Assembly (NCBI RefSeq): GCF_001277995.1
Contig: NZ_CP009220.1
Location: 1,550,001 to 1,614,000 of the forward strand
Reading direction: 5' to 3'
Length of the DNA: 64,000 bases
Origin: Corynebacterium deserti GIMN1.010
GTDB lineage: Bacteria; Actinomycetota; Actinomycetes; Mycobacteriales; Mycobacteriaceae
Shown here: positions 8,671-30,099 of the stretch, piece by piece
How the letters are laid out: each line of letters starts with the position of its first letter
How positions within the stretch are numbered: the first letter of the stretch is position 1
Position numbers and translations under genes: made by a program
Notes under the pieces: model-generated
What the model was told of the DNA's origin: nothing
Database searches by the model: none
Seen by the model: only the letters and a program-made list of their open reading frames with translations

Positions 8671-9321
8671 ATTTTCATTCGTCTTTCTGGGTTCAGTCAT
8701 AGGTGGCCGGGTGGCTTCCCTACGGGAGTGGTTTTTGAATCGTGCCATCACGCGGGATTGTGAAAATGCCTGCATGTCTGCAGGTTCCAGTGATCCGTCG
8801 ATGTGGTCTGCGAGTCCTGCTGTGACAGCTTCTGAGGCGGAGTACCAGGATTCCGCTCGCATTGCAGCACGCCAGAAATCCACACTTTCACTGGTGCGTG
8901 AAGCGTAGATGCCGGCGATGTTTTCCGATTCGCGATTAAGATGATCGATCATGGTCGCGAGGTCATCTGCGTTGCCGTAAGCCATAGCCATAGCGTCGTG
9001 AATCATGAGCTCAGAGTGTGGGGCCATGACTAGTTCATCTGCTGCACCTACGGCAATGAAAGAGGCAGCGCTTGCTGCCATGCCCTCTACAACTACGGTC
9101 ACACGCGCTTTGTGGCGCTTGAGTGAATTCATAATTGCCAGGCCATCCCACACGTCACCGCCTGGGCTGTGCATACGCACTGTCAAATCGGTGACATCTA
9201 GGTCTGCGATGTCGGTGGCAAATTGTTTGGCATCGACGCCGAACCACCCGCCGATTTCGTCATAAAGCAAAACCTCGGCAGCAGAACTACCGAGGTTGTT
9301 AATTGTCATTCGCTTTTTCAT
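8122..9321 (-). CDS. ClpP-like head maturation protease with C-terminal scaffold-like region
   Basis: A 399-residue protein. Residues about 10-185 are a ClpP/S49-like serine protease: HSPGGDVWDG (51-60), nucleophile region GMAASAAS with Ser84, and MIHDA with His109. The C-terminal half (from about residue 210) is rich in Glu and Ala with a long helical EEAELKWKEAEAKDAEA stretch, as in scaffolding proteins. It lies between portal and capsid genes, so it should cleave capsid or scaffold during head assembly. Its ATG overlaps the portal TAA (TAATG). An internal ATG at 8670 (MDFLNEIAQRLG) or 8700 could yield a separate scaffold. Confidence 0.85.
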   Translation of the reverse strand: MKKRMTINNLGSSAAEVLLYDEIGGWFGVDAKQFATDIADLDVTDLTVRMHSPGGDVWDGLAIMNSLKRHKARVTVVVEGMAASAASFIAVGAADELVMAPHSELMIHDAMAMAYGNADDLATMIDHLNRESENIAGIYASRTSESVDFWRAAMRAESWYSASEAVTAGLADHIDGSLEPADMQAFSQSRVMARFKNHSRREATRPPMTEPRKTNENMDFLNEIAQRLGLPTDKATDETTIINALEEALQEQVAEEPTEQAGTPDKEEATTTTEPSAPLPVDEEHTDADAPLTIEVDAARLAELEEAELKWKEAEAKDAEANLEKIAAQAVKDGKIGAAAQPRWVEALRNDFDDAKARLDNMRAGLVHRSETGHVKEVDNLTSAEHEAEEIQRAFKLNF

Positions 9322-10517: not shown

Positions 10518-10532
10518 ACACTCACCCCCTTA

Positions 10533-12515: not shown

Positions 12516-13769
12516 TCACTGGAAGGCTAGTCCTCCCAGGTCAACGCCGTTTCTTACGGGCTCACGAATCTTTTGCGGGGTGCTAGAGGTTGCTTGACGG
12601 GCGATTGCTGGCCGGAGATGGTCATTGCTGCCGTCTTGGCGTTGCGAATTGCAGGTGAAGTGCAGCAGGCGGTCGAGGTGTGATCCTCTGCGTGCTCCCT
12701 CGGCTTCGAGGTGGTCACGTGCGAGTGGTTTGCCATCGAAATTCTTGGTTTTATCTTTGTACATTGGTTTGCCACACCACCAGCAGAGTGAGCCGTCTTT
12801 ATGCTTGCGCAGTAGCGACTCGCGAGCTTGCTGGTGTTGCCATCCATAGCCTCGCTCAGTGGTGCTTTTAGCCCGCTTTGGTTTGATGCTTGCGTGTTTG
12901 CTGTACCAGGCTGCTGCGATTTTGAGCATTTCGGGCGGGCGTTCCGCTTTGCAGCGTTTCATCACGATATCTTTGCCTGGGTCAACCACGTCGATCACTG
13001 CGCCGAGTGTGCGGTAGTGGTCGAGGAGCTTATCTGATGGTGATGAATGGATGATCCATACTGTGTGGTCGCCTGCGTGTTTGATTGCTGCGTCTATTGC
13101 TGCTTGCCTGGTGGTTTTGGTGATCTGTTTGATGTGTTGTAGGTGCGTGTGGTTGGCAGGCGAGACACCGGCGAGTTCGTTGGCGATGGTGTCGAAGTCA
13201 ATGAGCACGTCACCTGGTTTCCACTGCTCTCGAATGAATGTGCTTTTGCCTGCTGCTGGTGGGCCGGTGACTACATGGATGTTGGTTGCGCCTTTAGTGG
13301 TGGGCAGTGCGTCGTCGTCGTGGTTGGTGATGAGTTGGCCCGGGTTGATGATTTCTGCGTCACGCGGCCACTGATCACGCTTCGAATACCAGGAGTCAAC
13401 GAGCCTGTGTTTGTAACCCGGCCTGTGCGCTTTGCAGCGCTGTAAGGCTGTGTCGTAGCCGGGGTCAATGACAATGAAGCTCGCACCATACCGGCGCCAC
13501 TGTCCTGCCTGCGAGTCAGTCAGGTTGGAGATCAGTACCCACACATCAACCTGGTTGCGGTGCTTGATTGCTTCCTGGATCGCTGCTTCCCTCGCAGCCT
13601 TGCTGACCTTCTTCACGATGGCATCATGGTGGTGCTTTGATTCCGATTTGCCGGTCAACGTGTTGGTGAGCTCGTCGGATCCAATCTGAATATCACCAGG
13701 TTTTGCGGTATTGCGTACCCAGGTGGATTTCCCGCAGCCTGGGCTGCCGGTGACGATGTGAAGCGACAT
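12516..13769 (-). CDS. Tandem polynucleotide-kinase-like P-loop domains fused to HNH endonuclease
   Basis: A 417-residue protein with two homologous P-loop kinase domains and a C-terminal HNH nuclease. The first has Walker A GSPGCGKST (8-16); the second has GPPAAGKST (169-177). Each is followed by a matching D-[EF]L/IANEL segment, an REAAIQEAIKH / RQAAIDAAIKH helix and an RCKAHRP / RCKAERP segment, so the domain is duplicated. The HNH part has CWWCGKP (329-335), ARDHLEAEG and HFTCNSQRQ. The start ATG 13769 has GGAGGTG just upstream. HNH genes beside terminase are usual in HK97-like phages and aid packaging; the duplicated kinase is not. It may process 5' or 3' DNA/RNA ends; substrate unknown. 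Confidence 0.8.
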   Translation of the reverse strand: MSLHIVTGSPGCGKSTWVRNTAKPGDIQIGSDELTNTLTGKSESKHHHDAIVKKVSKAAREAAIQEAIKHRNQVDVWVLISNLTDSQAGQWRRYGASFIVIDPGYDTALQRCKAHRPGYKHRLVDSWYSKRDQWPRDAEIINPGQLITNHDDDALPTTKGATNIHVVTGPPAAGKSTFIREQWKPGDVLIDFDTIANELAGVSPANHTHLQHIKQITKTTRQAAIDAAIKHAGDHTVWIIHSSPSDKLLDHYRTLGAVIDVVDPGKDIVMKRCKAERPPEMLKIAAAWYSKHASIKPKRAKSTTERGYGWQHQQARESLLRKHKDGSLCWWCGKPMYKDKTKNFDGKPLARDHLEAEGARRGSHLDRLLHFTCNSQRQDGSNDHLRPAIARQATSSTPQKIREPVRNGVDLGGLAFQ

Positions 13770-13845
13770 GCTCACCTCCATTATGTATTCAGTTTTAAAG
13801 TTTGAGCGCCGTTGGATTGGGTGGCGCAACACCCTAGCGGTTTAT

Positions 13846-19928: not shown

Positions 19929-20217
19929 CAACAACCACCGGACTCACACGACGCTTCACCACACGCGCCGGGGTGTCCGGCTCCCACAAGCTGGCAAAGT
20001 ATTCAGCCCTCTCTCTAGAGGGGAACCATTTCGCGGCCTCCTCCAATGAGTTGCCCGTATTTAGCGTGACCATGAAAATCCACCTCCCACCCATGAACAC
20101 CTGAACACTCCACACGTACTTTTCTTCCGAAATGGCGCGCACTGACTTCCAGGCGAGACCACTATCCCAGTCGGAACCTTTTAGTAGTTGCTGGGTGCGG
20201 GCGATGATGTCAGTCAT
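19921..20217 (-). CDS. Hypothetical phage protein, 98 residues
   Basis: Starts MTDIIARTQQLLKGSDWD. It contains a beta-rich YVWSVQVFMGGRWIFMVTLN segment and then SLEEAAKWFPSRERAEYFASLW, which looks like a small helix-strand regulatory domain. It overlaps its neighbours by 8 nt on both sides. No function can be assigned; it belongs to the early operon beside the nuclease gene. Confidence 0.55.
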   Translation of the reverse strand: MTDIIARTQQLLKGSDWDSGLAWKSVRAISEEKYVWSVQVFMGGRWIFMVTLNTGNSLEEAAKWFPSRERAEYFASLWEPDTPARVVKRRVSPVVVDG

Positions 20218-20644
20218 TGGTGTTCTCCCATTCGGTAATGAATCGGCGGACTTGTATGTCTTCGTCTGAGACTGCGGGTGTGACGTTTTTAGGCCATTTG
20301 TCCATGCCTTGCATTTCCCCGGTGCCTAAGCATTCCGCGCCGATTAGATCAACGGTTTGGCTGTCGTCCCCTGGTTCGTTCCACCACATGTGACCATCTA
20401 CCCATTCCCCTTTCGGTGGTGTGCCGTCTGGGTTCCAAGCGGGAGGAAGATCAAAACGTGGGGTGAAATGACTCAGTGGCGCAGTGCACGGATATGGACC
20501 TTGCGGCACCGTAGCCTGGGCATGTACCCCGTCTTTTTCTACACGCGCAAGGACAAGAAGTCTTCCATGTCCCTCTGTTTCACACCACATTCCCACACAC
20601 GATTGCCGTTCATCTGCCGTCATATCGGCAAGTGTTTTAGTCAT
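20210..20644 (-). CDS. Hypothetical phage protein, 144 residues
   Basis: Start placed at ATG 20644 (MTKTLADMTADERQ) because AAAGGAAA precedes it and it overlaps the stop of the exonuclease gene by 8 nt (ATGACTAA). The first half is a small beta-rich domain (VGMWCETEGHGRLLVLARVEKDG); the second has WVDGHMWWNEPGDD and an acidic end. No family recognised. The position between exonuclease and nuclease genes suggests an early DNA metabolism role. Confidence 0.55.
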   Translation of the reverse strand: MTKTLADMTADERQSCVGMWCETEGHGRLLVLARVEKDGVHAQATVPQGPYPCTAPLSHFTPRFDLPPAWNPDGTPPKGEWVDGHMWWNEPGDDSQTVDLIGAECLGTGEMQGMDKWPKNVTPAVSDEDIQVRRFITEWENTND

Positions 20645-21305
20645 TGGTTTCCTTTCCTGAGGTTTTGAGGATTCCTCCGGGTGCAGGGAATCGTTCAGGT
20701 AGGGGTGCAAGGGGTGGTCTTGCGACTGCGTTGAGGGTTGCTTTCACGAGTGCTGCTGATTGGCATAGGTCGTAGAGTGCTCTGTGGGGTTTGAGGTCCC
20801 AGCGGTTTAGGTGGTCGAGCATGTCCACGACCAGGAGCGTCTTCGCGTCGTTGATGGTGTCGTTGGTGATGTCGTACAAGCTTGTTGAGGCAAGTAGGAC
20901 TGAGGTGGCGTCGAGGCTTCGGTAGTGGAACATTCGGTGCAAATTTGGCATGTGGTGGTCTAGCCACGTGCGATCAAATGTCACTGACGATCCAAGCATT
21001 GGGAGCTTGTTTGCTCCAGCTTCGAGGATCCACGCAGACGCCTCCGCTTCTACTTGTCTAAGCGGTTGAGTGTGACCAGTCTTCAAGTCTTCCCAGAGGC
21101 CTGATTCTTCATGCATCACCTCCACCACAGGGGCTGACACAATCGCTTCCTTTTCGACCAGCTCATTGGTGAGCCATGATCTCGCTGCTATCGGCATGAG
21201 GTCTGCGTCGAAAATGATGATGCCCACTTCGAGGATCGCTCCTGAGTGGGCATCAAGTCCGGTGGTCTCTAAATCGAGGCCGATGAATGCGGGTTTAGGT
21301 TTCAT
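20637..21305 (-). CDS. DEDD-family 3'-5' exonuclease, oligoribonuclease/DnaQ-like
   Basis: A 222-residue protein. Exo I is LDLETTG (Asp11, Glu13). The Exo III region is KPHRALYDLCQSA with the HxAxxD arrangement expected of the DEDDh class, and LGSSVTFDRTWL supplies the middle Asp. It would degrade single-stranded DNA or short RNA from the 3' end. ATG 21305 overlaps the preceding gene (ATGA). It sits in the replication-repair part of the phage early operon with SSB and a resolvase-like nuclease. A Pro-rich tail replaces the longer domains of DnaQ. Confidence 0.8.
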   Translation of the reverse strand: MKPKPAFIGLDLETTGLDAHSGAILEVGIIIFDADLMPIAARSWLTNELVEKEAIVSAPVVEVMHEESGLWEDLKTGHTQPLRQVEAEASAWILEAGANKLPMLGSSVTFDRTWLDHHMPNLHRMFHYRSLDATSVLLASTSLYDITNDTINDAKTLLVVDMLDHLNRWDLKPHRALYDLCQSAALVKATLNAVARPPLAPLPERFPAPGGILKTSGKETND

Positions 21306-21553
21306 GGTGTTCTCCTTCGGTACAAACGAGTGTTATGTGGCGGTTTGCTTGATGTGTGAGTGACGTGGGCTCGGGTGTGATCAACCGGGCGGGTAACGAG
21401 CCTGCGATCCACCCGTGATGATTCGGGATCAGCTGTCTCCTCCAGGAGCTCCTCGATCTTCGCCATCGCCTCAGCAACCTCACGTACGAGTTTGCGCATA
21501 GCTGGCATGAATTCCTCGTTGAACCACTTCGTAAACAGAGTCGAGAAGTTCAT
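21302..21553 (-). CDS. Small helical hypothetical protein
   Basis: An 83-residue protein, MNFSTLFTKWFNEEF, with an amphipathic coiled-coil-like helix (MRKLVREVAEAMAKIEELLEE) and a basic C-terminus. It is connected on both sides by ATGA overlaps, which supports that it is translated. No function assigned. Confidence 0.5.
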   Translation of the reverse strand: MNFSTLFTKWFNEEFMPAMRKLVREVAEAMAKIEELLEETADPESSRVDRRLVTRPVDHTRAHVTHTSSKPPHNTRLYRRRTP

Positions 21554-21813
21554 CGGTCCTCACTTCCTTGAAAAACATCAAAGCCCGGCGCGCTAACTTG
21601 TTGTCGCGCCGGGCATTGGTGGGTGGTGTGTAGGGCTGTGTGGGCTATTTGGGCGAGTTCTAGGCGTACTCCGACTAGATATACGAAATGTCTGCGTTGT
21701 CGCTTCCAGCGACCGTCTGGGCGGGGTTTAGGATCCACTGGAATCCACGTGGTTCTTCGTTTGCCCCAGAGGATTGGCTCCCCGCAGTGAATACAGGTGC
21801 TCTCTTTCCTCAT
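21550..21813 (-). CDS. Small putative zinc-binding protein
   Basis: An 87-residue protein that begins MRKESTCIHCGEPILWG, a CxxC knuckle of the zinc-ribbon type; a second CxxC pair is not obvious, so metal binding is uncertain. The segment TTWIPVDPKPRPDGRWKRQ is typical of short phage proteins. It overlaps both neighbours by ATGA. A 10-bp GC-rich hairpin (21583-21614) lies inside its 3' end. Confidence 0.5.
   Translation of the reverse strand: MRKESTCIHCGEPILWGKRRTTWIPVDPKPRPDGRWKRQRRHFVYLVGVRLELAQIAHTALHTTHQCPARQQVSAPGFDVFQGSEDR
21583..21614. terminator. GC-rich hairpin, possible attenuator
   Basis: GCCCGGCGCG pairs with CGCGCCGGGC over a 12-nt loop. No T tract follows. The left arm is almost identical to that of the hairpin at 22090, so both may act as RNA stabilising or processing elements in the early transcript. 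Confidence 0.4.
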
Positions 21814-22070
21814 GCGCGCTCAGACACGAGGTACTTCAGAGCGTTGAGGTTCTCAGCGGACATACCAGCCCACCTAACAACACCATCAGGAGTGGACACC
21901 TCCACGAGCGGCAACTCCAACCACCCCTCGCTCCGCATCAGCTCGACTTTGTCCGGGTGCTCATCAATCTGAGGTGATGTGACCGGAACACCCATCTTGG
22001 TCAACGCCTTATGAGTAGCCCGACACTTCATACACCCAGGCCTCGAATACACAACAGCAGAAAAACTCAA
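21810..22070 (-). CDS. NrdH/glutaredoxin-like redoxin
   Basis: An 86-residue thioredoxin-fold protein with the redox motif CMKC (Cys13, Cys16), the cis-Pro region LELPLVEV and the C-terminal WAGMSAENLNAL helix, the standard NrdH features. NrdH supplies electrons to class Ib ribonucleotide reductase, the type corynebacteria use, so the phage copy probably raises dNTP supply. It overlaps the next gene by ATGA and follows a GC-rich hairpin that separates it from the gene upstream. Confidence 0.85.
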   Translation of the reverse strand: MSFSAVVYSRPGCMKCRATHKALTKMGVPVTSPQIDEHPDKVELMRSEGWLELPLVEVSTPDGVVRWAGMSAENLNALKYLVSERA

Positions 22071-22089
22071 CTCAAACTCCTCTCGAAAG

Positions 22090-22119
22090 CCCGGCGCGCC
22101 AAAAGTTGTGCGCGCCGGG
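22090..22119 (-). terminator. Intercistronic GC-rich hairpin
   Basis: CCCGGCGCGC / GCGCGCCGGG, perfect 10 bp, 10-nt loop, between the 116-residue gene and the redoxin gene. On the minus strand it is followed by CTTTCGAGAGG, a poor T tract, so partial termination or mRNA processing is more likely than a full stop. Confidence 0.45.
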
Positions 22120-22121
22120 TA

Positions 22122-22472
22122 CTAAAAAATTGCTAGCTGCTTAAGTGGCGGGATCCACTCCCACCACGTCGCACCCTCGCCTAAATCAACTGGATTGCAT
22201 TGCGCTTTCGGTACGTTTTGCACCGTGCATGCCTGCGGAAGAAGCACCTCATGGGCTTCGCCTTGGTACTCAATCCACGCTGCAAACTCGAAAGGGAAAT
22301 ATTTGCTCCCTGTCTGCCTCTCAACCACTCGGATCAATCGGTGATACCCCTGAGTCGAATAGCCCATGTCCGCAGGCTTAGCCCAGACCGCATGCCCAAC
22401 AAAGTGCTTTACATCTTCGATGCGGACAGTGGCAGTCACCGTCTCCTCCACCTCAGAACGGCGGCTCATCAT
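22122..22472 (-). CDS. Hypothetical protein, 116 residues
   Basis: The longer open frame overlaps SSB and is unlikely there; ATG 22472 ([16 protein letters not shown]) has GGTGG upstream and overlaps the SSB stop by 20 nt. It contains [22 protein letters not shown] and [12 protein letters not shown]. No family recognised. It is cotranscribed with SSB. Confidence 0.5.
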
Positions 22473-22980
22473 CGCTTCCACCGGAGCCACCTGAGCCTGC
22501 TGGTGGTGCGGAATTCCACGGATCATTCGCAGGCGCAGCCTGACCAAACCCACCACGAGACTCAGTTGCCGCTTGCGCTGGTGGCGGGCTTGCCTGCTGG
22601 CCAGCCTGCTTGCCTGTCTGCCGATGCACATTCGCATACGCAAACGTCAACGACGGCCCCACCTCATCAGCCTCAACCTCAAAGACACTGCGCTTCTCAC
22701 CCTCACGAGTCTCATAAGAACGCTGCTTCAATCGACCCGTGACGATAACGCGCATGCCCTTAGACAAAGACTCAGCCACATTCTCCGCAGCCTGACGCCA
22801 CACATTCACTGTCAGGAAGAGCGCTTCGCCGTCCTCCCACTGGTTGGATTGCCGGTTAAACGAGCGAGGCGTCGACGCCATCCTGAAATTGCACACCGCC
22901 GCACCCGAAGGCGTAAAACGCAGCTCCGGGTCAGCAACCATGTTCCCCACAACCGTGATATTCGTGTCACCTATCGCCAT
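22453..22980 (-). CDS. ssb: Single-stranded DNA-binding protein
   Basis: A 175-residue SSB. The OB-fold is in residues 1-110, with [20 protein letters not shown] at the start, [19 protein letters not shown] in the middle and [19 protein letters not shown] at the end. A Gly/Gln/Pro-rich linker follows, then the acidic protein-interaction tip DDEPPF. It protects single strands during phage replication and recruits partners through the tip. It is encoded directly after the putative helicase loader with a 14-nt overlap. It is a phage copy, distinct from the host ssb, which is not in this window. Confidence 0.93.
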
Positions 22981-23464
22981 TGAGCTTCTCTCTTCCCGCC
23001 TGGATCTTCTCCAAAGCTAATTTCCTTAAATCCGCAATTGCTTCCACATTTGGCTTCACCTCAATCTCACGAGGCTGAAAACCCCGAAGCTGAGCAAAAG
23101 TCCCATCCTTAAGCTGTTGATCACGCAGGTCTTCCATCCGGCGTCGATAAGCCCTCAACTGAGCGCGACCTTGAGGCGTGTTCTCCCACGCCTTGCGTTC
23201 CTCCTTCAACGCATCACGAATGTCCTTTGGCGACACCATGCGATTAGTAACGCCGCTGTTCGACCACCGAGCCAACGCAGCCATGACATTATGCTGAGAA
23301 ATCGATGACAGTTCCGGCAACGCACGACACCACGCTTCAACGTTCTCTTGCGAGATCACCGGGAACCGATCACCCACCAACGCCTTACCCTGCTGGAAAA
23401 ACTCAGTCATGAACTTCAACTGCTCAGCAGGCACAGGAGGCAAATCCCACTTTGAGCCGCTCAT
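22967..23464 (-). CDS. Possible helicase loader / replication accessory protein
   Basis: A 165-residue helical protein directly after the initiator gene (ATGA overlap) and before ssb. The N-terminal half ([45 protein letters not shown]) resembles the fold of phage G39P-type loaders, and the second half is a charged helix. Position between initiator and SSB is where phages encode a helicase loader. The assignment is inferred; no ATPase motif is present, which fits the G39P rather than the DnaC class. Confidence 0.5.
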
Positions 23465-24288
23465 AGAAGCTCACCGTCAATCACTTCACCCTCAAGCCAA
23501 TCCTGGGAATCATCCTCAATTCCCCACTCAGCTAGATAATCCTCAGCAGACTTGGCCACCGGATCAGCACTCGGCATTTGCGCATCCTCCCACCCGTCAC
23601 GATTAAGCCACGTAGTCGGATGAGGAATGAACTGCTCCTGAGGAAGATTCGGATCCTTCGCCAGCGACTGAGCACCAAACAGAATCTGTTCCTCCCCGGC
23701 GCGTTTGATTGCCCTTTCCCATGCTTTGTGGGCTGTTCGCTTTCCCACCCGGCGCGGGTAGGTCTTCCAGAACTCCTCGAATGAAGCGGGATAAGGTGCT
23801 CGTCCCCCGTGGGGGACTATAGGGGGTTGGTTTAAGGACGGTTTAGGGATGGTTAAGGACGGTTTGGGTGACACAGCTCTGTCACCCCGTTCTGCACTGG
23901 GTGTCACCCCGTTGGCGTCATTTTGACACCCCGTTGCGTCACCAGTGTCACCCCGTTCATCGTTTGGCGGGGTGTCAGGTTGGCACCCCGTGTTCTCTTG
24001 GGTCAGTGATAAATCCAAGTCCCAAACAGTTGGTCGGCGATCAGATCTAAAGTGCCCAACAATGCGTTGGTCCCCTTTTCGGATCAGTCCTTTTCGCTCA
24101 AGGTTCTTCAAGTGCCGCTGTACTGTTCTCGTTGAGCAGCGTGCCCGCTCAGCGATCCAGGAAACAGCGGGATAGGCTGCCTGCCCATTATCAGAAGCTC
24201 GATCAGCTAGTGCGTACAGCACAACTAATTCCGCATGATTATCAACAGGTGCTTCTTCCATCACCCAGATCATTGCTTTGAGGCTCAT
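23461..24288 (-). CDS. Phage replication initiator (HTH_36-like)
   Basis: A 275-residue protein from ATG 24288 (MSLKAMIWVMEEAP), chosen for GGAGGAGG just upstream and an ATGA overlap with a 49-codon gene. Residues 15-80 form a winged helix (HAELVVLYALADRASDNGQA, SWIAERARCSTRTVQRHLKNL, GLIRKGD). Residues 105-165 are a low-complexity linker whose DNA contains four 22-bp iterons. The C-terminal domain has FEEFWKTYPRRVGKRTAHKAW, common in phage initiators. Like lambda O, it should bind the iterons inside its own gene and open the origin. Confidence 0.8.
   Translation of the reverse strand: MSLKAMIWVMEEAPVDNHAELVVLYALADRASDNGQAAYPAVSWIAERARCSTRTVQRHLKNLERKGLIRKGDQRIVGHFRSDRRPTVWDLDLSLTQENTGCQPDTPPNDERGDTGDATGCQNDANGVTPSAERGDRAVSPKPSLTIPKPSLNQPPIVPHGGRAPYPASFEEFWKTYPRRVGKRTAHKAWERAIKRAGEEQILFGAQSLAKDPNLPQEQFIPHPTTWLNRDGWEDAQMPSADPVAKSAEDYLAEWGIEDDSQDWLEGEVIDGELL
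23880..23957. repeat. Four 22-bp iterons, probable phage replication origin
   Basis: TGTCACCCCGTT (one copy TGACACCCCGTT) starts at 23880, 23902, 23924 and 23946, an exact 22-bp period. An inverted copy (CGGGGTGTCA) lies at 23968 and a degenerate direct copy near 23981. The first copy is also one arm of an 8-bp inverted repeat centred near 23876. Because 22 is not a multiple of 3, each copy is read in another frame, so the repeats are kept as DNA, not as protein. A 13-bp pair TTAAGGACGGTTT at 23832 and 23853 flanks them. Confidence 0.8.
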
Positions 24289-24434
24289 TGTTCCTCCTCC
24301 CCTATCAGTGAGATGAAAAGTGAAAGCAGGGCATCGAGTAACACGGGGCTGGTGTTGGTGATGCCCTGCTCTGGTTCTTGGAGCCAAGTTTTAAGGTCGG
24401 CTCGGTCACGTGGTGAAAAGTTCTTCTTGTCCAA
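24285..24434 (-). CDS. Small hypothetical protein, 49 residues
   Basis: Starts at TTG 24434 (MDKKNFSPRDRADLKTWLQE) with GGAGGT about 10 nt upstream, and its TGA overlaps the ATG of the initiator gene (ATGA). It fills the gap between the HNH gene and the initiator. The predicted protein is one polar and one hydrophobic helix (VLLDALLSLFISLIG). Its function is unknown, but the coupling and reading-frame fit make it a likely real gene. Confidence 0.55.
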   Translation of the reverse strand: MDKKNFSPRDRADLKTWLQEPEQGITNTSPVLLDALLSLFISLIGEEEQ

Positions 24435-24747
24435 CGATGCTCACACCTCCGTCCGGAAGCAGGTGGACTTCTTGGCCTTGGCGGATGACGGTCACGTCGC
24501 CTGGTTGGTAGTTCATTTTGACCAGCCAGCCACTGGCGCGTGACAGCTGTGGGTTCCTGTGAATCCACTCGTGGCAGATATGGCACACGTCGAGCAGGTT
24601 TTCGACCAGGTGCTCACGACCAGAAATCTTCCGGTGATGCTTATGCTCACCCCTGGTGGTGCAGCCAATAGCGATAAGACCGACCTCGCAGTGGCCTTCG
24701 GAGCGCTCTGAGACGATGTCACGAATCTTCTTTGGGATATCACTCAT
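24406..24747 (-). CDS. HNH endonuclease-like protein
   Basis: A 113-residue protein from ATG 24747 (MSDIPKKIRDIVSERS), overlapping the upstream TGA (ATGA). It has Cys20 and Cys29, the HNH first half EHKHHRK (36-40) and Asn50 followed by LLDVCHICHEWIHRNP (Cys55, Cys58, His63). These give both the metal-finger cysteines and the His-Asn-His core. In an early operon such proteins can be homing, resolvase-like or host-DNA-degrading; it is distinct from the HNH fusion next to the terminase. Confidence 0.75.
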   Translation of the reverse strand: MSDIPKKIRDIVSERSEGHCEVGLIAIGCTTRGEHKHHRKISGREHLVENLLDVCHICHEWIHRNPQLSRASGWLVKMNYQPGDVTVIRQGQEVHLLPDGGVSIVGQEELFTT

Positions 24748-25142
24748 GGCAATCCCCTTCCTGCCAGTGGGTATGCAGTACGTAGACCAGCGGCCTGTGT
24801 CTGCAAAGCGGATAACTTGTTTTGCAGCTGAACCATGAGATCTCTCGCATACCAATAAGCGACCTCTGCTTGGTCACGCTCATTGTGGGCAGGATCAGTG
24901 TCAATCACCGTCTGCGCATCAGCGTCCTTGATGGACAAGCCATTTGAGCGGTGCTGCATGTAGACCATCGCCTTCTCACGCTTGAGAAGCCGTTCGCAAT
25001 CCTTCAGAATCCGGTTACGCTCGCGGACAATCTCCACACCACGCTCCAAGCGCTCGGTGGTCTCGCGGATCTGCCTCTCCACCTCCACAGGTGTCAAAGG
25101 TTGATCGCCGAGAATCACCTCACCAAAAATGTGCGCCACCAT
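24744..25142 (-). CDS. Coiled-coil hypothetical protein
   Basis: A 132-residue protein. After a short N-terminal segment it has a long charged helix (RQIRETTERLERGVEIVRER, LLKREKAMVYM) and a second helix (AEVAYWYARDLMVQLQNKL). It resembles small actinophage recombination or replication accessory proteins, but no family is certain. It is connected to the HNH gene by ATGA. Confidence 0.5.
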   Translation of the reverse strand: MVAHIFGEVILGDQPLTPVEVERQIRETTERLERGVEIVRERNRILKDCERLLKREKAMVYMQHRSNGLSIKDADAQTVIDTDPAHNERDQAEVAYWYARDLMVQLQNKLSALQTQAAGLRTAYPLAGRGLP

Positions 25143-25145
25143 GCA

Positions 25146-25346
25146 TCACTCCTCGACAATGTTGTCGAGTGCAATATCAGTCAGTGCAATAGCAACCTCA
25201 GAATCGTAATCATGCGAAAGGAAAAACTCATACGCAGTCTTAACCTCCTCCAAAGACTTACGCAGAGCCTCCGCCTCTCGTGCCTCCTGCGCTTCCATGT
25301 CCGCTTTAATCCGAGGTTTGAGCGCATACAGATCACTGGGGTTCAT
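25146..25346 (-). CDS. Small helical acidic protein
   Basis: A 66-residue protein from ATG 25346 (MNPSDLYALKPRIKADM), whose start overlaps the stop of the small membrane protein gene (ATGA); this decides against the in-frame ATG 12 nt earlier. It is mostly helical and Glu/Ala-rich. No function assigned. Confidence 0.5.
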   Translation of the reverse strand: MNPSDLYALKPRIKADMEAQEAREAEALRKSLEEVKTAYEFFLSHDYDSEVAIALTDIALDNIVEE

Positions 25347-25483
25347 GACAACATCCATCCAATCGGGAACGCCAACAACGCCACCGTGAACACGATGACG
25401 CCGAAGGGAATAAGAATTAAAAAAAGAGTCTCGATGTCATCATCGAAAGCCTCAAAACGATCAGGCCGGCCATCTCTACTCAT
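25343..25483 (-). CDS. Small single-span membrane protein, 46 residues
   Basis: MSRDGRPDRFEAFDDDIETL is followed by a hydrophobic span (FLILIPFGVIVFTVALLAFP) and a short tail. It is joined to both neighbours by ATGA overlaps. One transmembrane helix with an acidic cytoplasmic N-terminus is predicted. Function unknown; the next gene upstream also encodes a small membrane protein, so the two may act together. Confidence 0.6.
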   Translation of the reverse strand: MSRDGRPDRFEAFDDDIETLFLILIPFGVIVFTVALLAFPIGWMLS

Positions 25484-25671
25484 AGAGCACCAACCATCGC
25501 ACTCCACAGCAAGCCGGTACCGACCACCACACCAAAAGAGATAGCCACCAGGGTTTCTCCAGCGCGGTTGTACTTGTCCCGTGCACGCTGCAACTCATCG
25601 TCAGCCGACGTTTGCGGCTTGGTATCCATGACTCCGACCATCACTGCGAGATCATCAATGGGAAAACTCAT
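25480..25671 (-). CDS. Small membrane protein, 63 residues
   Basis: Starts at ATG 25671 (MSFPIDDLAVMVGVMD), overlapping the upstream TGA. A charged helix (DDELQRARDKYNRAGET) is followed by a C-terminal hydrophobic span (LVAISFGVVVGTGLLWSAMV). It is linked to the 46-residue membrane protein by ATGA. No function assigned. Confidence 0.55.
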   Translation of the reverse strand: MSFPIDDLAVMVGVMDTKPQTSADDELQRARDKYNRAGETLVAISFGVVVGTGLLWSAMVGAL

Positions 25672-25952
25672 CGTGGGTTCTTCCTTCCCGTATGCGTAGA
25701 TAAAAAGCCTTGAATCTTTGGTTCGCATTCATCACAAAAGCCCAACCGCGATAGTGTCTTCTGCTTCCTTTTGCAGCCGTGGTATTCGCACATCTTCTCC
25801 TCTGAACTCCGCACAGCCACAAGCTTGCGGAAACGACCAACCGCATTGATATGCTCAGCAGCTTCACGCCACGACGAATGGAACTGACGAAGCCCCTTGG
25901 ACTCACTCATCCACATTCCGCCGACTGGCTTAATCTGAGGTGCGCTAACCAT
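25668..25952 (-). CDS. Small protein with four-cysteine motif
   Basis: A 94-residue protein from ATG 25952 (GGAAGG upstream). The C-terminal part holds CEYHGCKRKQ and LGFCDECEPK, a CxxxxC-CxxC set that may bind zinc. The N-terminal part has WREAAEHINAVGRFRKLVAV. It is an early operon member of unknown function. Confidence 0.5.
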   Translation of the reverse strand: MVSAPQIKPVGGMWMSESKGLRQFHSSWREAAEHINAVGRFRKLVAVRSSEEKMCEYHGCKRKQKTLSRLGFCDECEPKIQGFLSTHTGRKNPR

Positions 25953-26100
25953 CTTTCTTTCCTTCCCCGGTGCGAACCTCATAGATCTGAACCAGCTCGT
26001 CGAGGTTGCGGATAATGATCGTGATCAGATACTTTTCACGATCATTCCAGCCATTCCACCTGCACACTTTCAACAGCGTGGACTTAGTATTCTTCAGCAT
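25945..26100 (-). CDS. Small hypothetical protein, 51 residues
   Basis: MLKNTKSTLLKVCRWNGWND at the start, then YLITIIIRNLDELVQIYEV. Its TAG overlaps the start of the next gene by 8 nt and it starts 9 nt after the HTH gene stop. The frame fills this gap exactly. Function unknown. Confidence 0.5.
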   Translation of the reverse strand: MLKNTKSTLLKVCRWNGWNDREKYLITIIIRNLDELVQIYEVRTGEGKKDG

Positions 26101-26108
26101 GGTGGGGA

Positions 26109-26297
26109 TCACGCTGCCTCCTCAATCCCCAGATGGCGATCAATATCAATCTTCACGAAGCGAACGGCTTCACCAGCTCGATGCCACCTAAACGGAGGCT
26201 CCAAAGCACCCGCATATGCGTGCTTCAACAGCGTGGACTTCGCATATCCAAGAAGCTCAGCAGCTTCCCCAGCGCTATAAGTCAATTGCCTAGACAC
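26109..26297 (-). CDS. Excisionase-like HTH protein
   Basis: A 62-residue single winged-helix domain, LTYSAGEAAELLGYAKSTLLKHAY then FRWHRAGEAVRFVKIDIDRHLG, of the MerR/excisionase (HTH_17) type. Such proteins act as recombination directionality factors or small repressors. It lies near the start of the early operon, where the phage would need an excisionase at induction, but far from the integrase. Overlaps the upstream gene by 8 nt. Confidence 0.65.
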   Translation of the reverse strand: MSRQLTYSAGEAAELLGYAKSTLLKHAYAGALEPPFRWHRAGEAVRFVKIDIDRHLGIEEAA

Positions 26298-26550
26298 TGG
26301 CCCTTACCTCCTTGATCTCATTAAAAGGAACAAGCTCGATGGTTTCCCGGCGCAAGTCGGTGTTCCATACCTTCGCCAACGCATAAGGCGTTTCGCCTTC
26401 GCCAACACCGACAAGCTTCGCTGGCTCCTGCTCTCCCCAGAGCTCAAGCTCAACCGCACCCGCGGCAAGCAACCCAAGAAGCAACTGTGGCGTGATTCGT
26501 GACTTTTTCACGGTGGACTCTCCTGATGGTGGAAGGCTGATAGAATTCAT
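26290..26550 (-). CDS. Hypothetical early protein, 86 residues
   Basis: Starts at ATG 26550 (MNSISLPPSGESTVKKSR) with AAAGGAAA upstream. It contains LLLGLLAAGAVELELW and RETIELVPFNEIKEV. It is the first gene after the terminator-like hairpin at 26579, so its expression may depend on readthrough. No family recognised. Confidence 0.5.
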   Translation of the reverse strand: MNSISLPPSGESTVKKSRITPQLLLGLLAAGAVELELWGEQEPAKLVGVGEGETPYALAKVWNTDLRRETIELVPFNEIKEVRASV

Positions 26551-26578
26551 GGTGATTTCCTTTCCTGGAATCAAAAAT

Positions 26579-26607
26579 GCCCGCCACCTGGTCAAGAGGT
26601 GGCGGGC
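26579..26607. terminator. Strong 11-bp hairpin upstream of the main early gene block
   Basis: GCCCGCCACCT / AGGTGGCGGGC, perfect stem with a 7-nt loop. On the minus strand it is followed by ATTTTTG, so it should stop minus-strand transcription arriving from the immunity region before the replication genes. On the + strand no T run follows. Confidence 0.7.
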
Positions 26608-26636
26608 AACTTATTTAAATAACCGTGGAGGATATT

Positions 26637-27311
26637 ATGGAGTGGGCTTCAATTTTCATTTCTGCTAGCGCCTTCCTCACGGCACTTGTAGCTCTCGCAG
26701 TTTCCTATCTTCAACTAAGAGAAGCGCGAACCTCAACAGGTGGACGAGGAATGTACATGTACTTCCGCCCTGTTCAAAGAGATGACGTCAGTCCAGAAGA
26801 GGCTGCACTAATTGACGAATCGCTTTTTGACTTAACAAGTAAAAATCCAGACATCCAAATGACAGCAATACTTCTCGTTGTAGAAGTTCACGGACCGGCG
26901 GCTTTCTATGAAGTAGGTCCACATACATGGGGTGAAGCTGGAATGCCTGACACCCCATTAGCCTTCAAGCCAGTCAAAAAACTAACGTGCGAATCAGGCC
27001 CCACATCATTTGTAGTAATAATCCAAACTGATTTGCTCCCTACAACGAAACTCGGAGTCGTCTGGCTTCAGCCATGGCAACGAGGCCTGGAAACAAGCTC
27101 AATCCGATCAAACTTAAATGGCGACTTAGAAGAATGGGTTTTCTACTCACGATTTCGAAAGATTTTTGCCAAGAAAGGTGTCACTGGGCGCTGGCGCTCG
27201 AAAAAGAACGGACCCATAACTTACGGTCCAATCTCTCAGCCATGGCAACACCCTAGCGCTAAATCAAAAATCCTCTTCAAAAGACGTAGGAATGCTAAAA
27301 CAGATTATTAA
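26637..27311 (+). CDS. N-terminally membrane-anchored protein, possible exclusion factor
   Basis: A 224-residue protein on the opposite strand to its surroundings. GGAGGA lies 4 nt before ATG 26637. Residues about 5-26 (IFISASAFLTALVALAVSYL) form one membrane span, followed by a short QLREART linker and a soluble beta-rich domain (YMYFRPVQRDD, TAILLVVEVHG, SFVVIIQTDLL, FYSRFRKIFA). No family recognised. Low GC and orientation suggest a gene expressed from the prophage, for instance in superinfection exclusion. Confidence 0.6.
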   Translation: MEWASIFISASAFLTALVALAVSYLQLREARTSTGGRGMYMYFRPVQRDDVSPEEAALIDESLFDLTSKNPDIQMTAILLVVEVHGPAAFYEVGPHTWGEAGMPDTPLAFKPVKKLTCESGPTSFVVIIQTDLLPTTKLGVVWLQPWQRGLETSSIRSNLNGDLEEWVFYSRFRKIFAKKGVTGRWRSKKNGPITYGPISQPWQHPSAKSKILFKRRRNAKTDY

Positions 27312-27493
27312 AGCAGCAATTGAGCAAATAATCGAAGCAATTGACAACACAAGTGAAGCTGCAACCAACATGTATCCTCCTCTCATATTTATCTTTGTTG
27401 GGCGCAGCCGTACCAGCAGGACAAGCTGGAAACATGAGCCCCGCCAGGTGGGTACGGCTTAACAGTCATGCGTGAACCGTTTTTAACGCCTCG
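27312..27493. other. Non-coding spacer around a structured element
   Basis: No gene. It contains the 54-nt inverted-repeat element described separately (27406-27459). The rest is AT-rich with no promoter or terminator that I can support. Confidence 0.5.
27406..27459. ncRNA. Possible three-way-junction RNA element
   Basis: A perfect 9-bp closing stem AGCCGTACC / GGTACGGCT encloses two further helices: CCAGC-7 nt-GCTGG and CCC-8 nt-GGG, separated by AAACATGAG (+ strand reading; the closing stem shares two C with the first inner helix). It lies 34 nt beyond the 3' end of the tRNA-Arg on that strand. No T tract follows on either strand. A structured RNA or processing signal is possible; the family is unknown. 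Confidence 0.35.
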
Positions 27494-27566
27494 TGCCTGC
27501 AGCTGGATTCGAACCAGCGGCCTAAGGATTAGAAGTCCTTTGCTCTGTCCGCTGAGCTATGCAGGC
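27494..27566 (-). tRNA. tRNA-Arg (anticodon TCT)
   Basis: A 73-nt cloverleaf: acceptor GCCTGCA / TGCAGGC with discriminator A, D stem GCTC / GAGC, anticodon stem AAGGA / TCCTT around loop CTTCTAA (anticodon TCT, reads AGA), variable AGGCC, T stem GCTGG / CCAGC with TTCGAAT. CCA is not encoded. It is in the phage early region on the coding strand of the early operon, so it is probably phage cargo supplementing a rare host codon. Confidence 0.93.
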
Positions 27567-27816
27567 TACTGTCGTCGTCTTTCCGCATCATCGTCACAGT
27601 GACGACATGCCCCCAAAGGGGATACGATGCGGGGCTCCCCTGCCCGGCTCGCCACCGGGTGGTACTCCACGACGAAAAAGTGTTTCAATGTTGAGTTCTC
27701 ATACATCACGTACCCGGCGCGACCCCACACCCTGTTTTGGGTGGTCGCTAGTCCCAGGGACTGAGTGCCCGTGAGGAGGCTTGCACTCCTCTGCCTACTG
27801 GTCGGGCTGCTGTTTG
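27567..27816. other. 250-bp non-coding region rich in hairpins
   Basis: Between the tRNA and the next gene. It has TCGTCACAGTGACGA (27591-27605, palindrome), CCCCAAAGGGG, a CACCC/GGGTG stem within an outer GCGAC/GTCGC pair near 27717-27747, AGTCCC/GGGACT, and GAGGAG-7 nt-CTCCTC at about 27773-27791. No reading frame looks coding. The several hairpins suggest a processed leader or non-coding RNA upstream of the tRNA. Confidence 0.4.
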
Positions 27817-28092
27817 TTAGTGGTATCCGTCGAGGATTGCTCGCATTTCGTTGACTGCGTGTTCGAGTGCGAGGAAGTCTTGTCCGGAGAAGTCGTATGG
27901 TCCGAGTTCGAGGGTGATGCCGGATGCTGCGCTGGTGGTGATGCGCATTGGTAGGCGTGCCCAGGAGTCGTTATTTGGGGTGTGGGGTTCTGGGATTCCG
28001 AGTTCCTGGATGACTTCGCGTGAGCCTTCGCGGTCGATGTCGTATCGGTCTGCGTCGTGTAGCGGGAACGGTGAGGAAACGTCATGCAGCAT
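27817..28092 (-). CDS. Hypothetical protein following the antirepressor
   Basis: A 91-residue protein from ATG 28092 (MLHDVSSPFPLHDADRY), overlapping the antirepressor end by 11 nt. It has a DIDREGSREVIQELG helix, ARLPMRITTSAASGITLELG strands and FLALEHAVNEMRAILDGY helix. No family recognised; probably translated together with the antirepressor. Confidence 0.5.
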   Translation of the reverse strand: MLHDVSSPFPLHDADRYDIDREGSREVIQELGIPEPHTPNNDSWARLPMRITTSAASGITLELGPYDFSGQDFLALEHAVNEMRAILDGYH

Positions 28093-28924
28093 TTCGGCCC
28101 CCAACCTCAAGCTCAGGCTGGTCCGCCCGCAGCCACTTACCAACAGCACGTTTAATAGCAGCAGCGCCAGCCGGAGTGATCTTTAGCGTGTGGTCAACCT
28201 CGCCACGGAAACGCGGAGCATCATGATTCTGCCTACGAATGAAATACGGCTTCTTGTCCGCATACTCCGAGTACCGGTACTGAGGAATAACCTCCCCAGT
28301 CTTTTGTGATCGGCGCGATGAGCTCTCCTTGTAGATCCAGCCCTTCTCAATCAAAAGATTGCGGAGTGCCTTCTCCCCCATCTCCAAAGTGGATGCCACC
28401 GTGCGGAAGCTCAGCTGATCGGATTCAGCAACATAGGTGTCGTGATAGGTGACCTTCGGGGCTGCAACTTCCAGCTGCGTAGCCTGTGCCTGGACGGTGG
28501 TTTCAAGTTCCTGCATCATGGACTGCGCTTCAATCAGGGCTTTCGCCATGAGCTGCTTACCAGAAAGTGCTGGTGTGGAAAGCTGCTTTTCCATCTCCAC
28601 GAAAGCCCGGATGAGATTCTTTTTGAAGTCCAGAACAATCTCGTTGTTTCGGAACAGCGTCATGGCGAACATTGCTTGTTCACGGTTTAAGATTGCGATT
28701 TCTCGGGACTGCATTCCACCAGCCGTGTTAAAGGGTTGATTCTTAAAATCGACCCTTCCGAAGGTTTCAAAATCGGTGAGGTACTTCCGCACCAGTCGGA
28801 TTACATTGCGGTGCTCGTTGTCAGTTCCGACTGCAATGATGTGACTGTCGGTGACGAGTGAACCATCTTGGGCGGTATTGACCAGGGCGGGTTGTATACT
28901 GGAGGTGGTAGCGGTGAGGGACAT
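28082..28924 (-). CDS. Phage antirepressor, Rha + KilAC type
   Basis: A 280-residue protein from ATG 28924 (AGGAG 8 nt upstream; ATG 28930 is too close to it). The N-terminal 110 residues match Rha-type regulators: SLVTDSHIIAVGTDNEHRNV, FKNQPFNTAGG, REIAILNREQAMFAMTLFRN. A coiled coil follows, then the KilAC/ANT domain (SFRTVASTLEMGEKALRNLL, EKGWIYK, PQYRYSEYADKKPYFI, LKITPAGAAAIKRAVGK). Such proteins relieve repression or change host regulation when the lytic cycle begins. It stands early in the minus-strand operon. Confidence 0.85.
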   Translation of the reverse strand: MSLTATTSSIQPALVNTAQDGSLVTDSHIIAVGTDNEHRNVIRLVRKYLTDFETFGRVDFKNQPFNTAGGMQSREIAILNREQAMFAMTLFRNNEIVLDFKKNLIRAFVEMEKQLSTPALSGKQLMAKALIEAQSMMQELETTVQAQATQLEVAAPKVTYHDTYVAESDQLSFRTVASTLEMGEKALRNLLIEKGWIYKESSSRRSQKTGEVIPQYRYSEYADKKPYFIRRQNHDAPRFRGEVDHTLKITPAGAAAIKRAVGKWLRADQPELEVGGRNAA

Positions 28925-28955
28925 TCTCATCGCTCCTTTCTTTTAAGGGGTAAAA

Positions 28956-29594
28956 GTGGATTGGGAAACAATCAACTGGGGAGTGGCGACTGACGCCGGT
29001 GCGTTATTGATCGGACTCGGCGGCTTCATCTACGCTGGCTTGGCTCACAAGCGAGCTAAGGAAGCCAACATGCTCGCGAAGGACGCGGTGGTCGCCGCGA
29101 AAAAAGCGAACCTCATTGCAGAGCAAGCCAACGATCTGGCTGGAGACTCGAATACGATCTCGCAACGGGCGCTCGACATCAGTGCGGAGAGCGTCGAATA
29201 CGAGTTCACTCTCAATGTCGATGAACAACGGGGGGCCATCATCGTCAATCACAATCCCCTGCCCGTATCCGACGTTTCCGTCTTCGTCCTTTCGGAAGGC
29301 CGAGCAGTGGCGAACATTGAAGGTGAAAGCGCCGAGCCCTTCGGCGAAATTGCGCTCAGCCTCACGAGCCTTATTGACGAGACAATCGAACGTGCCAAGA
29401 AGATGAACTTCAGAATTGTCAGTGAAGGGCCCTACGGGGACAGCAAGCGGAGTGGTCGCCACCCAGTAACCTGCACCGTGACCGCTACCGTTGGATACCG
29501 AACCCAGTCCGGAAAGCAGCTGAGCACCAAGCTTGATGACACATTCGGCGTAGTCGAGGACAGTCACGGACAAATTAGGTTCTTCAAGTCGTGA
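28956..29594 (+). CDS. N-terminally anchored coiled-coil protein
   Basis: A 212-residue protein, divergent from the antirepressor. It starts at GTG 28956 with AAGGGG upstream. Residues about 12-30 (TDAGALLIGLGGFIYAGLA) are a membrane span, followed by a long Ala/Lys/Glu helix (AKEANMLAKDAVVAAKKANL) and a beta-sandwich-like domain (VEYEFTLNVDEQRGAIIVN, VSDVSVFVLSEGRAVAN, VTCTVTATVGYRTQ). Function unknown. It shares the one-anchor design with the genes at 26637 and 29632. Confidence 0.6.
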   Translation: MDWETINWGVATDAGALLIGLGGFIYAGLAHKRAKEANMLAKDAVVAAKKANLIAEQANDLAGDSNTISQRALDISAESVEYEFTLNVDEQRGAIIVNHNPLPVSDVSVFVLSEGRAVANIEGESAEPFGEIALSLTSLIDETIERAKKMNFRIVSEGPYGDSKRSGRHPVTCTVTATVGYRTQSGKQLSTKLDDTFGVVEDSHGQIRFFKS

Positions 29595-29631
29595 GGGCAT
29601 TTCGAAGCTTCCTTTCATTTAGTATGTGAAT

Positions 29632-30099
29632 ATGGATCTGGGGACGGTTTCGTCATGGGTTGCTGCTGCGATTTCGTTCGCCTCGGCGGGAGGGGCAGTG
29701 CTGTGGTCCTGGTGGAACCGCCCGAAAGTGGACTGGTTATTTACCGGGAAAATCGCCAATCCCTCACAAGACCGTCAGCAGCTTGTTATTCGCGGGGATT
29801 GTGGAAACTTCGGCGATGGAAACGCTCACCGAGTAAGCGTTTGGATCCAGCGGTCTTCCAAAGTCGAATCGGAGCGGATAGCCACCGCCCCACTGCTCCG
29901 ACCAGGGGAAGCCGTCTCTTTCGAGACCACGATGCATATAGCCGGTCTGGATCGGGCCTCGGTTTTTGTGCGCTGGACTCCGGCACCAATACGTCGCCGC
30001 AACGAGCGCACATCCGAGAGCTACTCAACTCGGGATGTTTTTGAACTAAGTCCTCTAGTCGTTGAGGCCGACCAGAAATACCGCAGTAGCCAGGATTGA
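29632..30099 (+). CDS. N-terminally anchored small protein
   Basis: A 155-residue protein. No ribosome site precedes the ATG, but TAGTAT lies about 6 nt upstream, so a leaderless transcript is likely. Residues about 6-26 (SSWVAAAISFASAGGAVLWSW) form a membrane span; the rest is an immunoglobulin-like beta domain (LVIRGDCGNFGDGNAHRVSV, LRPGEAVSFETTMHIAG, ASVFVRWTP). No family recognised. It is encoded on the + strand inside the minus-strand early region, next to a protein of the same design. Confidence 0.55.
   Translation: MDLGTVSSWVAAAISFASAGGAVLWSWWNRPKVDWLFTGKIANPSQDRQQLVIRGDCGNFGDGNAHRVSVWIQRSSKVESERIATAPLLRPGEAVSFETTMHIAGLDRASVFVRWTPAPIRRRNERTSESYSTRDVFELSPLVVEADQKYRSSQD

What the first reader, a model, noticed from the sequence alone, without database searches (positions are those of the whole stretch)
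23832..23992. 22-bp iterons inside the initiator gene, selected at DNA level
TGTCACCCCGTT-type repeats start at 23880, 23902, 23924 and 23946, exactly 22 bp apart, about two helical turns, with an inverted copy at 23968. Since 22 is not divisible by 3, the copies encode different peptides (ERGD, NGVT, TGCQ, ERGD), so the repeat is conserved as DNA. The layout, origin in the linker of the initiator, matches lambda O, but the iteron sequence is new to me.
Basis: seen in the sequence. Interest (0 to 1): 0.65.

Follow-up and report, generated by a model that had tools for sequence, protein, structure and literature searches.

The report
Phage replication origin inside initiator gene
A virus sleeping in a Corynebacterium genome seems to carry the starting point for copying its DNA inside the gene of the protein that starts the copying, and one amino acid of that protein tracks one DNA letter of the start signal across many related viruses, which makes the recognition directly testable.

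Summary
Four copies of AACGGGGTGWCA lie exactly 22 bp apart inside a prophage initiator gene, read in different frames; none of 400 synonymous-codon shuffles of the gene gave more than 2 in-register copies. The array is larger than reported: a converging pair upstream, an inverted half-site downstream, then 10-11-bp AACC repeats. Relatives (PHROG 270/1032) in Corynebacterium prophages, Arthrobacter and Pseudomonas phages and metagenome phages share the plan: the best repeat period is 22 in 44 of 69 and, in a second set, 54 of 96 non-redundant genes. Residue 58 of the recognition helix predicts iteron base 11: Arg with C, other residues with A, in 39 of 39 genes with at least 3 units, then 49 of 49 held-out genes, 318 of 318 units. 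This ties the N-terminal HTH to the repeats. Some relatives carry helicase-loader genes next door. Best reading: a lambda-type intragenic origin, but with asymmetric direct iterons where lambda's are palindromic, and an initiator outside Pfam's lambda-O family. Binding and replication are not shown. New variant of a known kind; repeats in a Pseudomonas phage O-like gene were noted before (PMC8508860).

The parts
23461..24288 (-). initiator gene, 275 aa: N-terminal winged HTH, disordered linker, C-terminal domain
   Evidence: PHROG 270 E 2.9e-38; HTH_36 at residues 17-69; AlphaFold2 model mean pLDDT 95-98 over residues 1-90, 47-54 over 101-150
24082..24240 (-). HTH_36 DNA-binding domain, residues 17-69; predicted recognition helix 53-65
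24115..24117 (-). codon of Arg58, the residue that co-varies with iteron base 11
23981..23992 (-). upstream direct core CACGGGGTGCCA, outside the 22-bp register
23966..23977 (+). upstream inverted core, forms a converging pair with 23981-23992
23946..23957 (-). iteron unit 1 AACGGGGTGACA
23924..23935 (-). iteron unit 2 AACGGGGTGTCA
23902..23913 (-). iteron unit 3 AACGGGGTGACA
23880..23891 (-). iteron unit 4 AACGGGGTGACA
23865..23873 (+). downstream inverted half-site TGGGTGACA (one mismatch in the first six bases)
23829..23868 (-). AACC-type repeats 10-11 bp apart, candidate unwinding zone
   Evidence: TRF period 11; spacing 11, 10; period 11 in most relatives with an array
22967..23464 (-). 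next gene, 165 aa; occupies the slot of helicase-loader genes in some relatives (own identity not shown)
   Evidence: phrog_6055 only, E 0.003, function unknown; relatives' next genes
22453..22980 (-). single-strand DNA-binding protein gene
   Evidence: PF00436 E 1.4e-30

Best explanation
The segment 23829-23992 is the replication origin of this prophage, embedded in the linker of its own initiator gene. Initiator subunits bind GGGGTGxC half-sites through their N-terminal winged HTH (supported by covariation, not by assay); Arg58 of the recognition helix probably reads the G opposite base C11 (inferred). Four half-sites in direct orientation 22 bp apart, flanked by inverted half-sites, would line the subunits up on roughly one face of the DNA; the assembly would strain and open the adjacent AACC 11-mer zone, and the C-terminal domain would bring in the helicase through a loader from the next gene (all inferred from the lambda paradigm and gene order).
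For: Initiator family and HTH. Array conserved as DNA: best period 22 in 44 of 69 non-redundant genes (39 of the 54 significant against synonymous shuffles) and 54 of 96 in a second set (53 of 79 significant). A same-genus relative (L026), 46% identical over the matched part and 43% in the alignment, keeps the same core four times at 22 bp. Residue 58 and base 11 agree in 39 of 39 genes with at least 3 units and in 49 of 49 held-out genes; by single units 74 of 74 with Arg have C and 244 of 244 without Arg have A. Both traits change 7 times on the tree; all 5 well-supported independent pairs go the same way. Residue 58 explains 100% of base-11 entropy, the next best of residues 1-95 explains 57%. 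Flanking sites, found without looking at base 11, obey in 154 of 155 cases. Residue 58 lies in the second HTH helix, 53-65. Next genes: lambda-P-like in L131 and L146, IstB/DnaC-like in L111, L088 and L148, Toprim in L121, of 9 relatives tested. The 44 nt after the array are lower in GC than the gene in 88 of 88.
Against: No binding or replication experiment. In the window itself the candidate unwinding zone is hardly AT-rich (GC 0.50 against 0.54) and the next gene is not recognisable as a loader. 15 of 69 and 17 of 96 genes show no significant array of any period 14-33, and 15 of 69 and 26 of 96 have a significant array of another period; 30 of 69 and 47 of 96 genes have fewer than 3 motif units and do not enter the residue-base count. 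The tree-aware sign test has only 5 usable pairs (p 0.0625). Only 19 of the 88 genes carry Arg58. Structure matches are weak: best Foldseek E 0.024, VIA-align Z 8.3 at most.
Confidence: 0.85

Rival explanations
1. The repeats are operators: the initiator binds them only to regulate transcription of its own operon, and the origin lies elsewhere.
For: The domain is a generic winged HTH, with CRP and MarR-type regulators among the structure matches, and the covariation speaks for binding, not for origin function.
Against: The sites lie about 300-420 bp inside the gene; no sigma-70-like site was found in 22900-24500, though 0.6 were expected by chance and host promoters may differ; the 22-bp register followed by an 11-bp repeat zone is an origin-like plan; loader-type genes follow in some relatives; outside the array only one further GGGGTGNCA occurs in the window.
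Confidence: 0.1
2. The repeats are a by-product of selection on a repetitive linker peptide.
For: Linker peptides of relatives share motifs such as NGVT, ERG, TGC.
Against: 22 is not a multiple of 3; copies sit in frames 1, 2, 0, 1, and 0 of 400 synonymous shuffles restore more than 2 copies; L007 is 66% identical in protein but has another core.
Confidence: 0.02
3. The residue-base agreement is only shared ancestry, so the HTH need not touch the repeats.
For: R and non-R genes are partly clades; the tree-aware test gives p 0.0625.
Against: The states differ within several groups and always together: Arthrobacter QR and QN, CCGG-type RR and RN/RT, L260 (RR) and L262 (RN); no other residue of the domain exceeds 57% of base-11 entropy; the residue is in the predicted recognition helix.
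Confidence: 0.05

Closest known systems
Phage lambda origin (ori-lambda) in gene O
   Same: Four iterons and then an AT-rich zone inside the initiator gene; loader gene P next (passages of PMC5043065 and PMC7466680).
   Different: Lambda iterons are 18-19-bp inverted repeats bound by O dimers (passages), spaced 20, 24, 23; here direct asymmetric units at 22, 22, 22, with inverted sites at the array ends. Lambda O hits Pfam PF04492; this protein does not.
Shiga-toxin-converting phage origins (P27, 933W)
   Same: Intragenic iterons plus AT-rich tract (PMC7466680 passages).
   Different: Six lambda-type iterons and lambda-like O proteins (PMC7466680 passages).
Iteron plasmid origins (P1, F, RK2, R6K)
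   Same: Mostly direct, helically phased iterons next to an A+T-rich zone (PMC5043065 passages). A relative of the window protein (L026) matches the plasmid RepC N-terminal profile PF03428 just above its cut-off (25.1 against 24.4 bits).
   Different: Iterons lie outside the initiator gene in those plasmids (recalled); the window protein itself has no plasmid Rep match.
Pseudomonas phage MD8 O-like gene gp56
   Same: Repeats within an O-like gene were noted and read as lambda-like (PMC8508860 passage).
   Different: The passages seen give no sequence, spacing, flanking sites or specificity residue; MD8 itself was not compared here.
Geminivirus Rep and iterons
   Same: Iterons interact with the cognate Rep sequence-specifically and often differ between close relatives (start of the abstract of PMC12548392 in the listing).
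   Different: Unrelated proteins and rolling-circle replication (recalled).

Membership tests
Lambda-type intragenic phage origin (kind of system) | Iteron array inside the initiator gene between DNA-binding and C-terminal domains | tested here: met
   Units at gene nt 332-409; HTH residues 17-69, C-terminal helices 168-229 in the model
Lambda-type intragenic phage origin (kind of system) | Iterons recognised by the encoded initiator | tested here: inconclusive
   Residue 58 and base 11 agree in 88 of 88 genes with at least 3 units, indirect evidence; no binding assay
Lambda-type intragenic phage origin (kind of system) | AT-rich unwinding zone beside the iterons | tested here: inconclusive
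   Family mean GC 0.48 against 0.61, lower in 88 of 88; window only 0.50 against 0.54
Lambda-type intragenic phage origin (kind of system) | Helicase-loader gene directly downstream | tested here: inconclusive
   Recognised in 5 of 9 relatives tested, plus one Toprim protein; these 9 were chosen from 13 next ORFs found in 16 loci; window's 165-aa gene not recognised
Lambda-type intragenic phage origin (kind of system) | Supports autonomous replication | not testable with these tools
   needs a plasmid assay
Lambda O protein family (Pfam PF04492 Phage_rep_O) | PF04492 match | tested here: not met
   Lambda O matches at 5.7e-36; window protein has no match listed up to E 0.1. Both share weaker PHROG hits 391, 678, 345
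Lambda O protein family (Pfam PF04492 Phage_rep_O) | Each iteron is an inverted repeat | tested here: not met
   In the window the four units are direct; inverted cores lie before the first and after the last unit
PHROG 270/1032 replication initiation proteins | Profile match | tested here: met
   E 2.9e-38 and 3.7e-26
Iteron plasmid origin | Direct, helically phased iterons | tested here: met
   22, 22, 22 bp
Iteron plasmid origin | Plasmid Rep-type initiator | tested here: inconclusive
   Window protein: best Pfam HTH_36, no plasmid Rep family listed; relatives L026 and L070 match RepC N-terminal domain PF03428 at 1.7e-5 (above cut-off) and 4e-4 (below)

The most novel reading that the evidence does not exclude
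A widespread class of phage origins, found from Corynebacterium to Pseudomonas phages, is built on an 11-bp lattice inside the initiator gene: converging half-sites at the ends, four direct 22-bp half-sites, then 11-bp AACC repeats. It works with initiator subunits lined up in one direction, unlike lambda's dimers on palindromes, and its specificity is set in large part by one residue-base contact (58 to 11) that phages have switched repeatedly, which would keep co-resident phages from firing each other's origins.
Probability: 0.4. Interest if true: 0.75.

Novelty: new variant of a known kind. Interest (0 to 1): 0.55.

Why it matters
Lambda O matched no chain among the solved-structure sequences searched, so how intragenic phage origins are read is largely inferred. 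A single-residue rule seen in 88 natural initiator-array pairs, with dozens of natural arrays of known register, makes the reading, the assembly geometry and origin exclusivity between phages directly testable. It also suggests a way to find origins in unannotated phages: look for a 22-bp array in the linker of HTH_36 initiators.

Tried and rejected
One search used a register that was off by one base, and differently for the two core types, and gave no agreement; it was corrected and is discarded. Protein-repeat explanation: rejected by frame and synonymous shuffles. RNA element: no Rfam match at gathering threshold in 22400-25400; the single-strand DNA fold is not remarkable (z -1.68, 9 of 200 shuffles fold as well); the terminator-like hit at 23967-23991 is the converging core pair, and 2 such hits were found against 1.7 expected. 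A simple rule for the GGGGTG to CCGGA switch (residue 57 alone) fails: R57 occurs with both cores; residues 42 and 47 fit parts of it in the 39-gene set but are confounded with lineage. No similarity was found between the window's next gene and that of L182 in a direct comparison, although both hit phrog_6055. Sequence search for solved relatives gave nothing useful (one weak AsnC-type match, E 0.0045). Foldseek gave no match at E 0.001 or better; in the second look the listed rows, many of them winged-helix proteins, have Z 8.3 or less, among them CRP (7.7) and the DnaD N-terminal domain (7.2), levels that the tool calls common.

Rows dropped before counts. First set: 119 genes were taken from the window and the 191 loci then held. 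Left out were loci that repeat the window's or G124's array, or whose match did not reach the N-terminus or whose start was not set: L001-L004, L009-L022, L028-L056, L155-L179 and L073. So of the same-genus hits only L023-L027 entered, and of the same-family hits none. One gene was too short; 12-mer overlap above 50% collapsed the rest to 69: 42 from viral contigs, 14 phage records, 9 named genomes, 2 same-genus genomes, the window and lambda. Of these 39 had at least 3 in-register motif units, 8 had 2 (no exception to the Arg/C rule, but the L140 register is doubtful) and 22 fewer. Held-out set: 223 loci, 2 short, 125 near-duplicates, 96 left, 49 with at least 3 units, 47 not; the motif list was the one of the first set. 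Only 18 of the 185 phage records with a match were fetched; lambda was fetched by accession. The synonymous-shuffle null for motif offsets is high at some forward offsets (up to 51 of 88), because the array supplies its own codons. Next genes: 13 ORFs were found in 16 loci and 9 of these 13, partly chosen by eye, were given to Pfam.

Same-genus sample: 26 of 151 genomes have a protein match, but the two-unit repeat with up to 3 mismatches was found in 2 of 151, the window's own genome and G124.

Literature: ten answered searches. At most 20 papers per search were listed (of 69, 203,054) and I saw titles and abstract starts; none of the listed ones announced this iteron, its 22-bp array in Corynebacterium or Arthrobacter phages, or the residue-base rule. 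Only open-licence PMC papers are held. Passages were read in PMC7466680, PMC7157519, PMC5043065 and PMC8508860; the rest were seen in listings only.

Full report
What was checked. The window lies at 1,550,001-1,614,000 of contig 1 of a 3.03-Mb genome. Same-genus genomes G022 and G124 hold contigs whose lengths equal those of named Corynebacterium records (71434 and 119476 bases), so the host is very probably a Corynebacterium (inference). The region is a prophage: head protease, portal and large terminase genes lie at 8122-12083. The finding is in a minus-strand gene, 23461-24288, 275 aa, a replication initiation protein (PHROG 270, E 2.9e-38) with an HTH_36 domain. An SSB gene is the second gene downstream.

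The repeats. Four copies of AACGGGGTGWCA (gene strand) lie at 23946, 23924, 23902 and 23880, exactly 22 bp apart, and nowhere else in the genome. They fall in frames 1, 2, 0, 1, and 0 of 400 synonymous shuffles gave a run longer than 2. The set is larger than reported. Upstream in the gene there is a converging pair, a direct core at 23981-23992 and an inverted one at 23966-23977. Downstream there is an inverted half-site at 23865-23873, then AACC repeats 10-11 bp apart at 23829-23868.

The family. Relatives came from phage records, IMG/VR, same-genus genomes and named genomes; which were left out is told under Tried and rejected. Among 69 non-redundant genes the best self-match period between 14 and 33 is 22 in 44; of the 54 with shuffle p at most 0.05, 39 have period 22, the others 21 and 23 (4 each), 17 and 25 (2 each), 24, 27 and 33 (1 each); lambda gives 23. 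The core differs: AACGGGGTGACA in the window and in G124 (L026), GGGGTGCCA, GGGGTGCAC or GGGGTGAAC in Arthrobacter phages, GGGGTGCAA in Pseudomonas phages, ACCGGACA or ACCGGAAA in several other loci (such as L008, L023, L025, L027), and GGTAGCTCA in L007. So the period is kept while the word changes. In the same genus only 2 of 151 sampled genomes hold the window's own two-unit repeat with up to 3 mismatches.

The recognition rule. In one search the second base after GGGGTG looked tied to the residue aligned with Arg58 of the recognition helix. With the register set correctly (one search was wrong), 13 of 13 genes with R58 have C at base 11 and 26 of 26 with Y, N, T or S have A. The rule was written into the notebook before new loci were fetched. 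Of 96 held-out non-redundant genes, 49 have at least three units: 6 with R58 have C, 43 without R58 have A. By single units, 74 of 74 with Arg have C and 244 of 244 without have A. The held-out genes are relatives of the first set, found with queries made from it, and 35 of the 49 carry Tyr. On a tree of the N-terminal domain without the helix both traits change 7 times (the two counts must be equal, since the traits agree in every row); in the 5 well-supported independent pairs they go together (p 0.0625, the limit for 5 pairs). Residue 58 explains all of the base-11 entropy, the next best of residues 1-95 explains 57%. Flanking sites, found by their first six bases only, agree in 154 of 155 cases (downstream inverted found in 63 of 88 genes, upstream inverted in 44, upstream direct in 48); the exception is one upstream inverted site in L260. 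The codon for residue 58 lies about 160-235 bp from the units, so the agreement is not an effect of overlap. AlphaFold2 puts residue 58 in the second HTH helix (53-65) of a confidently modelled N-terminal domain; the linker that carries the array has low confidence and no predicted structure, as a disordered stretch would.

Layout across the 88 genes, measured from the last unit (at most 1 mismatch of 8): direct cores at 0, -22 and -44 in 88 by construction, at -66 or -63 in 77, at -96 or -93 in 58; inverted cores at +13 in 62 and at -83 or -80 in 50, and in 15 genes each at -40 and -18. The window has its flanking inverted sites at +16 and -88. After the array, A[AT]CC words are spaced 11 bp in 152 cases against 20.5 expected from synonymous shuffles, and the 44 nt are lower in GC than the gene in 88 of 88 (0.48 against 0.61); in the window the difference is small (0.50 against 0.54).

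Neighbours. Of 9 next genes given to Pfam, two are lambda-P-like (L131, L146), three IstB/DnaC-like ATPases (L111, L088, L148), one a Toprim protein (L121), and L139, L123 and L182 gave no match, nor did the window. PHROGs call L131 and L146 P-like helicase loaders. In the 13 Arthrobacter phage regions fetched, a DNA methylase or methyltransferase gene follows instead.

Mechanism. Shown by sequence: the array, its DNA-level conservation, the covariation. Inferred: that Arg58 reads the G opposite C11; that subunits assemble in one direction on 22-bp half-sites with inverted caps; that the 11-mer zone opens; that the C-terminal domain recruits a helicase loader. The steps follow the lambda paradigm described in PMC5043065 and PMC7466680 (passages).

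Comparison with what is known. It works like lambda's origin. It is not a member of the lambda O family by Pfam, and the iterons are direct and asymmetric, the plasmid style, not palindromic; one relative, L026, even matches a plasmid RepC N-terminal profile just above its cut-off. Repeats in an O-like gene of Pseudomonas phage MD8 were noted in print (PMC8508860), so intragenic repeats in this wider group are not new; the 22-bp plan, the flanking sites and the residue-base rule were not seen in the titles and abstract starts listed.

Verdict.

Noticed in passing
window 27412-27701: The only near match to a phage record in 20000-30000 is 290 bp of Corynebacterium phage CL31 at 78%; it overlaps the tRNA-Arg(tct) gene at 27493-27566 on the minus strand.
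   Followed up: no
window 12516-13832: 438-aa protein that matches terminase small subunit, HNH endonuclease and polynucleotide kinase profiles in different parts, as if modules were fused.
   Followed up: no
L089, L201 and several of L207-L257: Other branches of the initiator family have significant arrays with period 24 or 23; most of them lack three in-register GGGGTG-type units.
   Followed up: no
L032 (G056:C1:770212-770628): A relative broken by several stops; the locus still holds four in-register copies of a 22-bp repeat with a CCTGACAC-type core.
   Followed up: no
L071, Escherichia phage Ayreon O-like gene: Significant 21-bp-period array starting near gene nt 263 in a distant relative.
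   Followed up: no
plasmid collection: 56 plasmid records encode relatives of the initiator, among them Streptomyces, Arsenophonus and Piscirickettsia plasmids; whether they carry arrays was not looked at.
   Followed up: no
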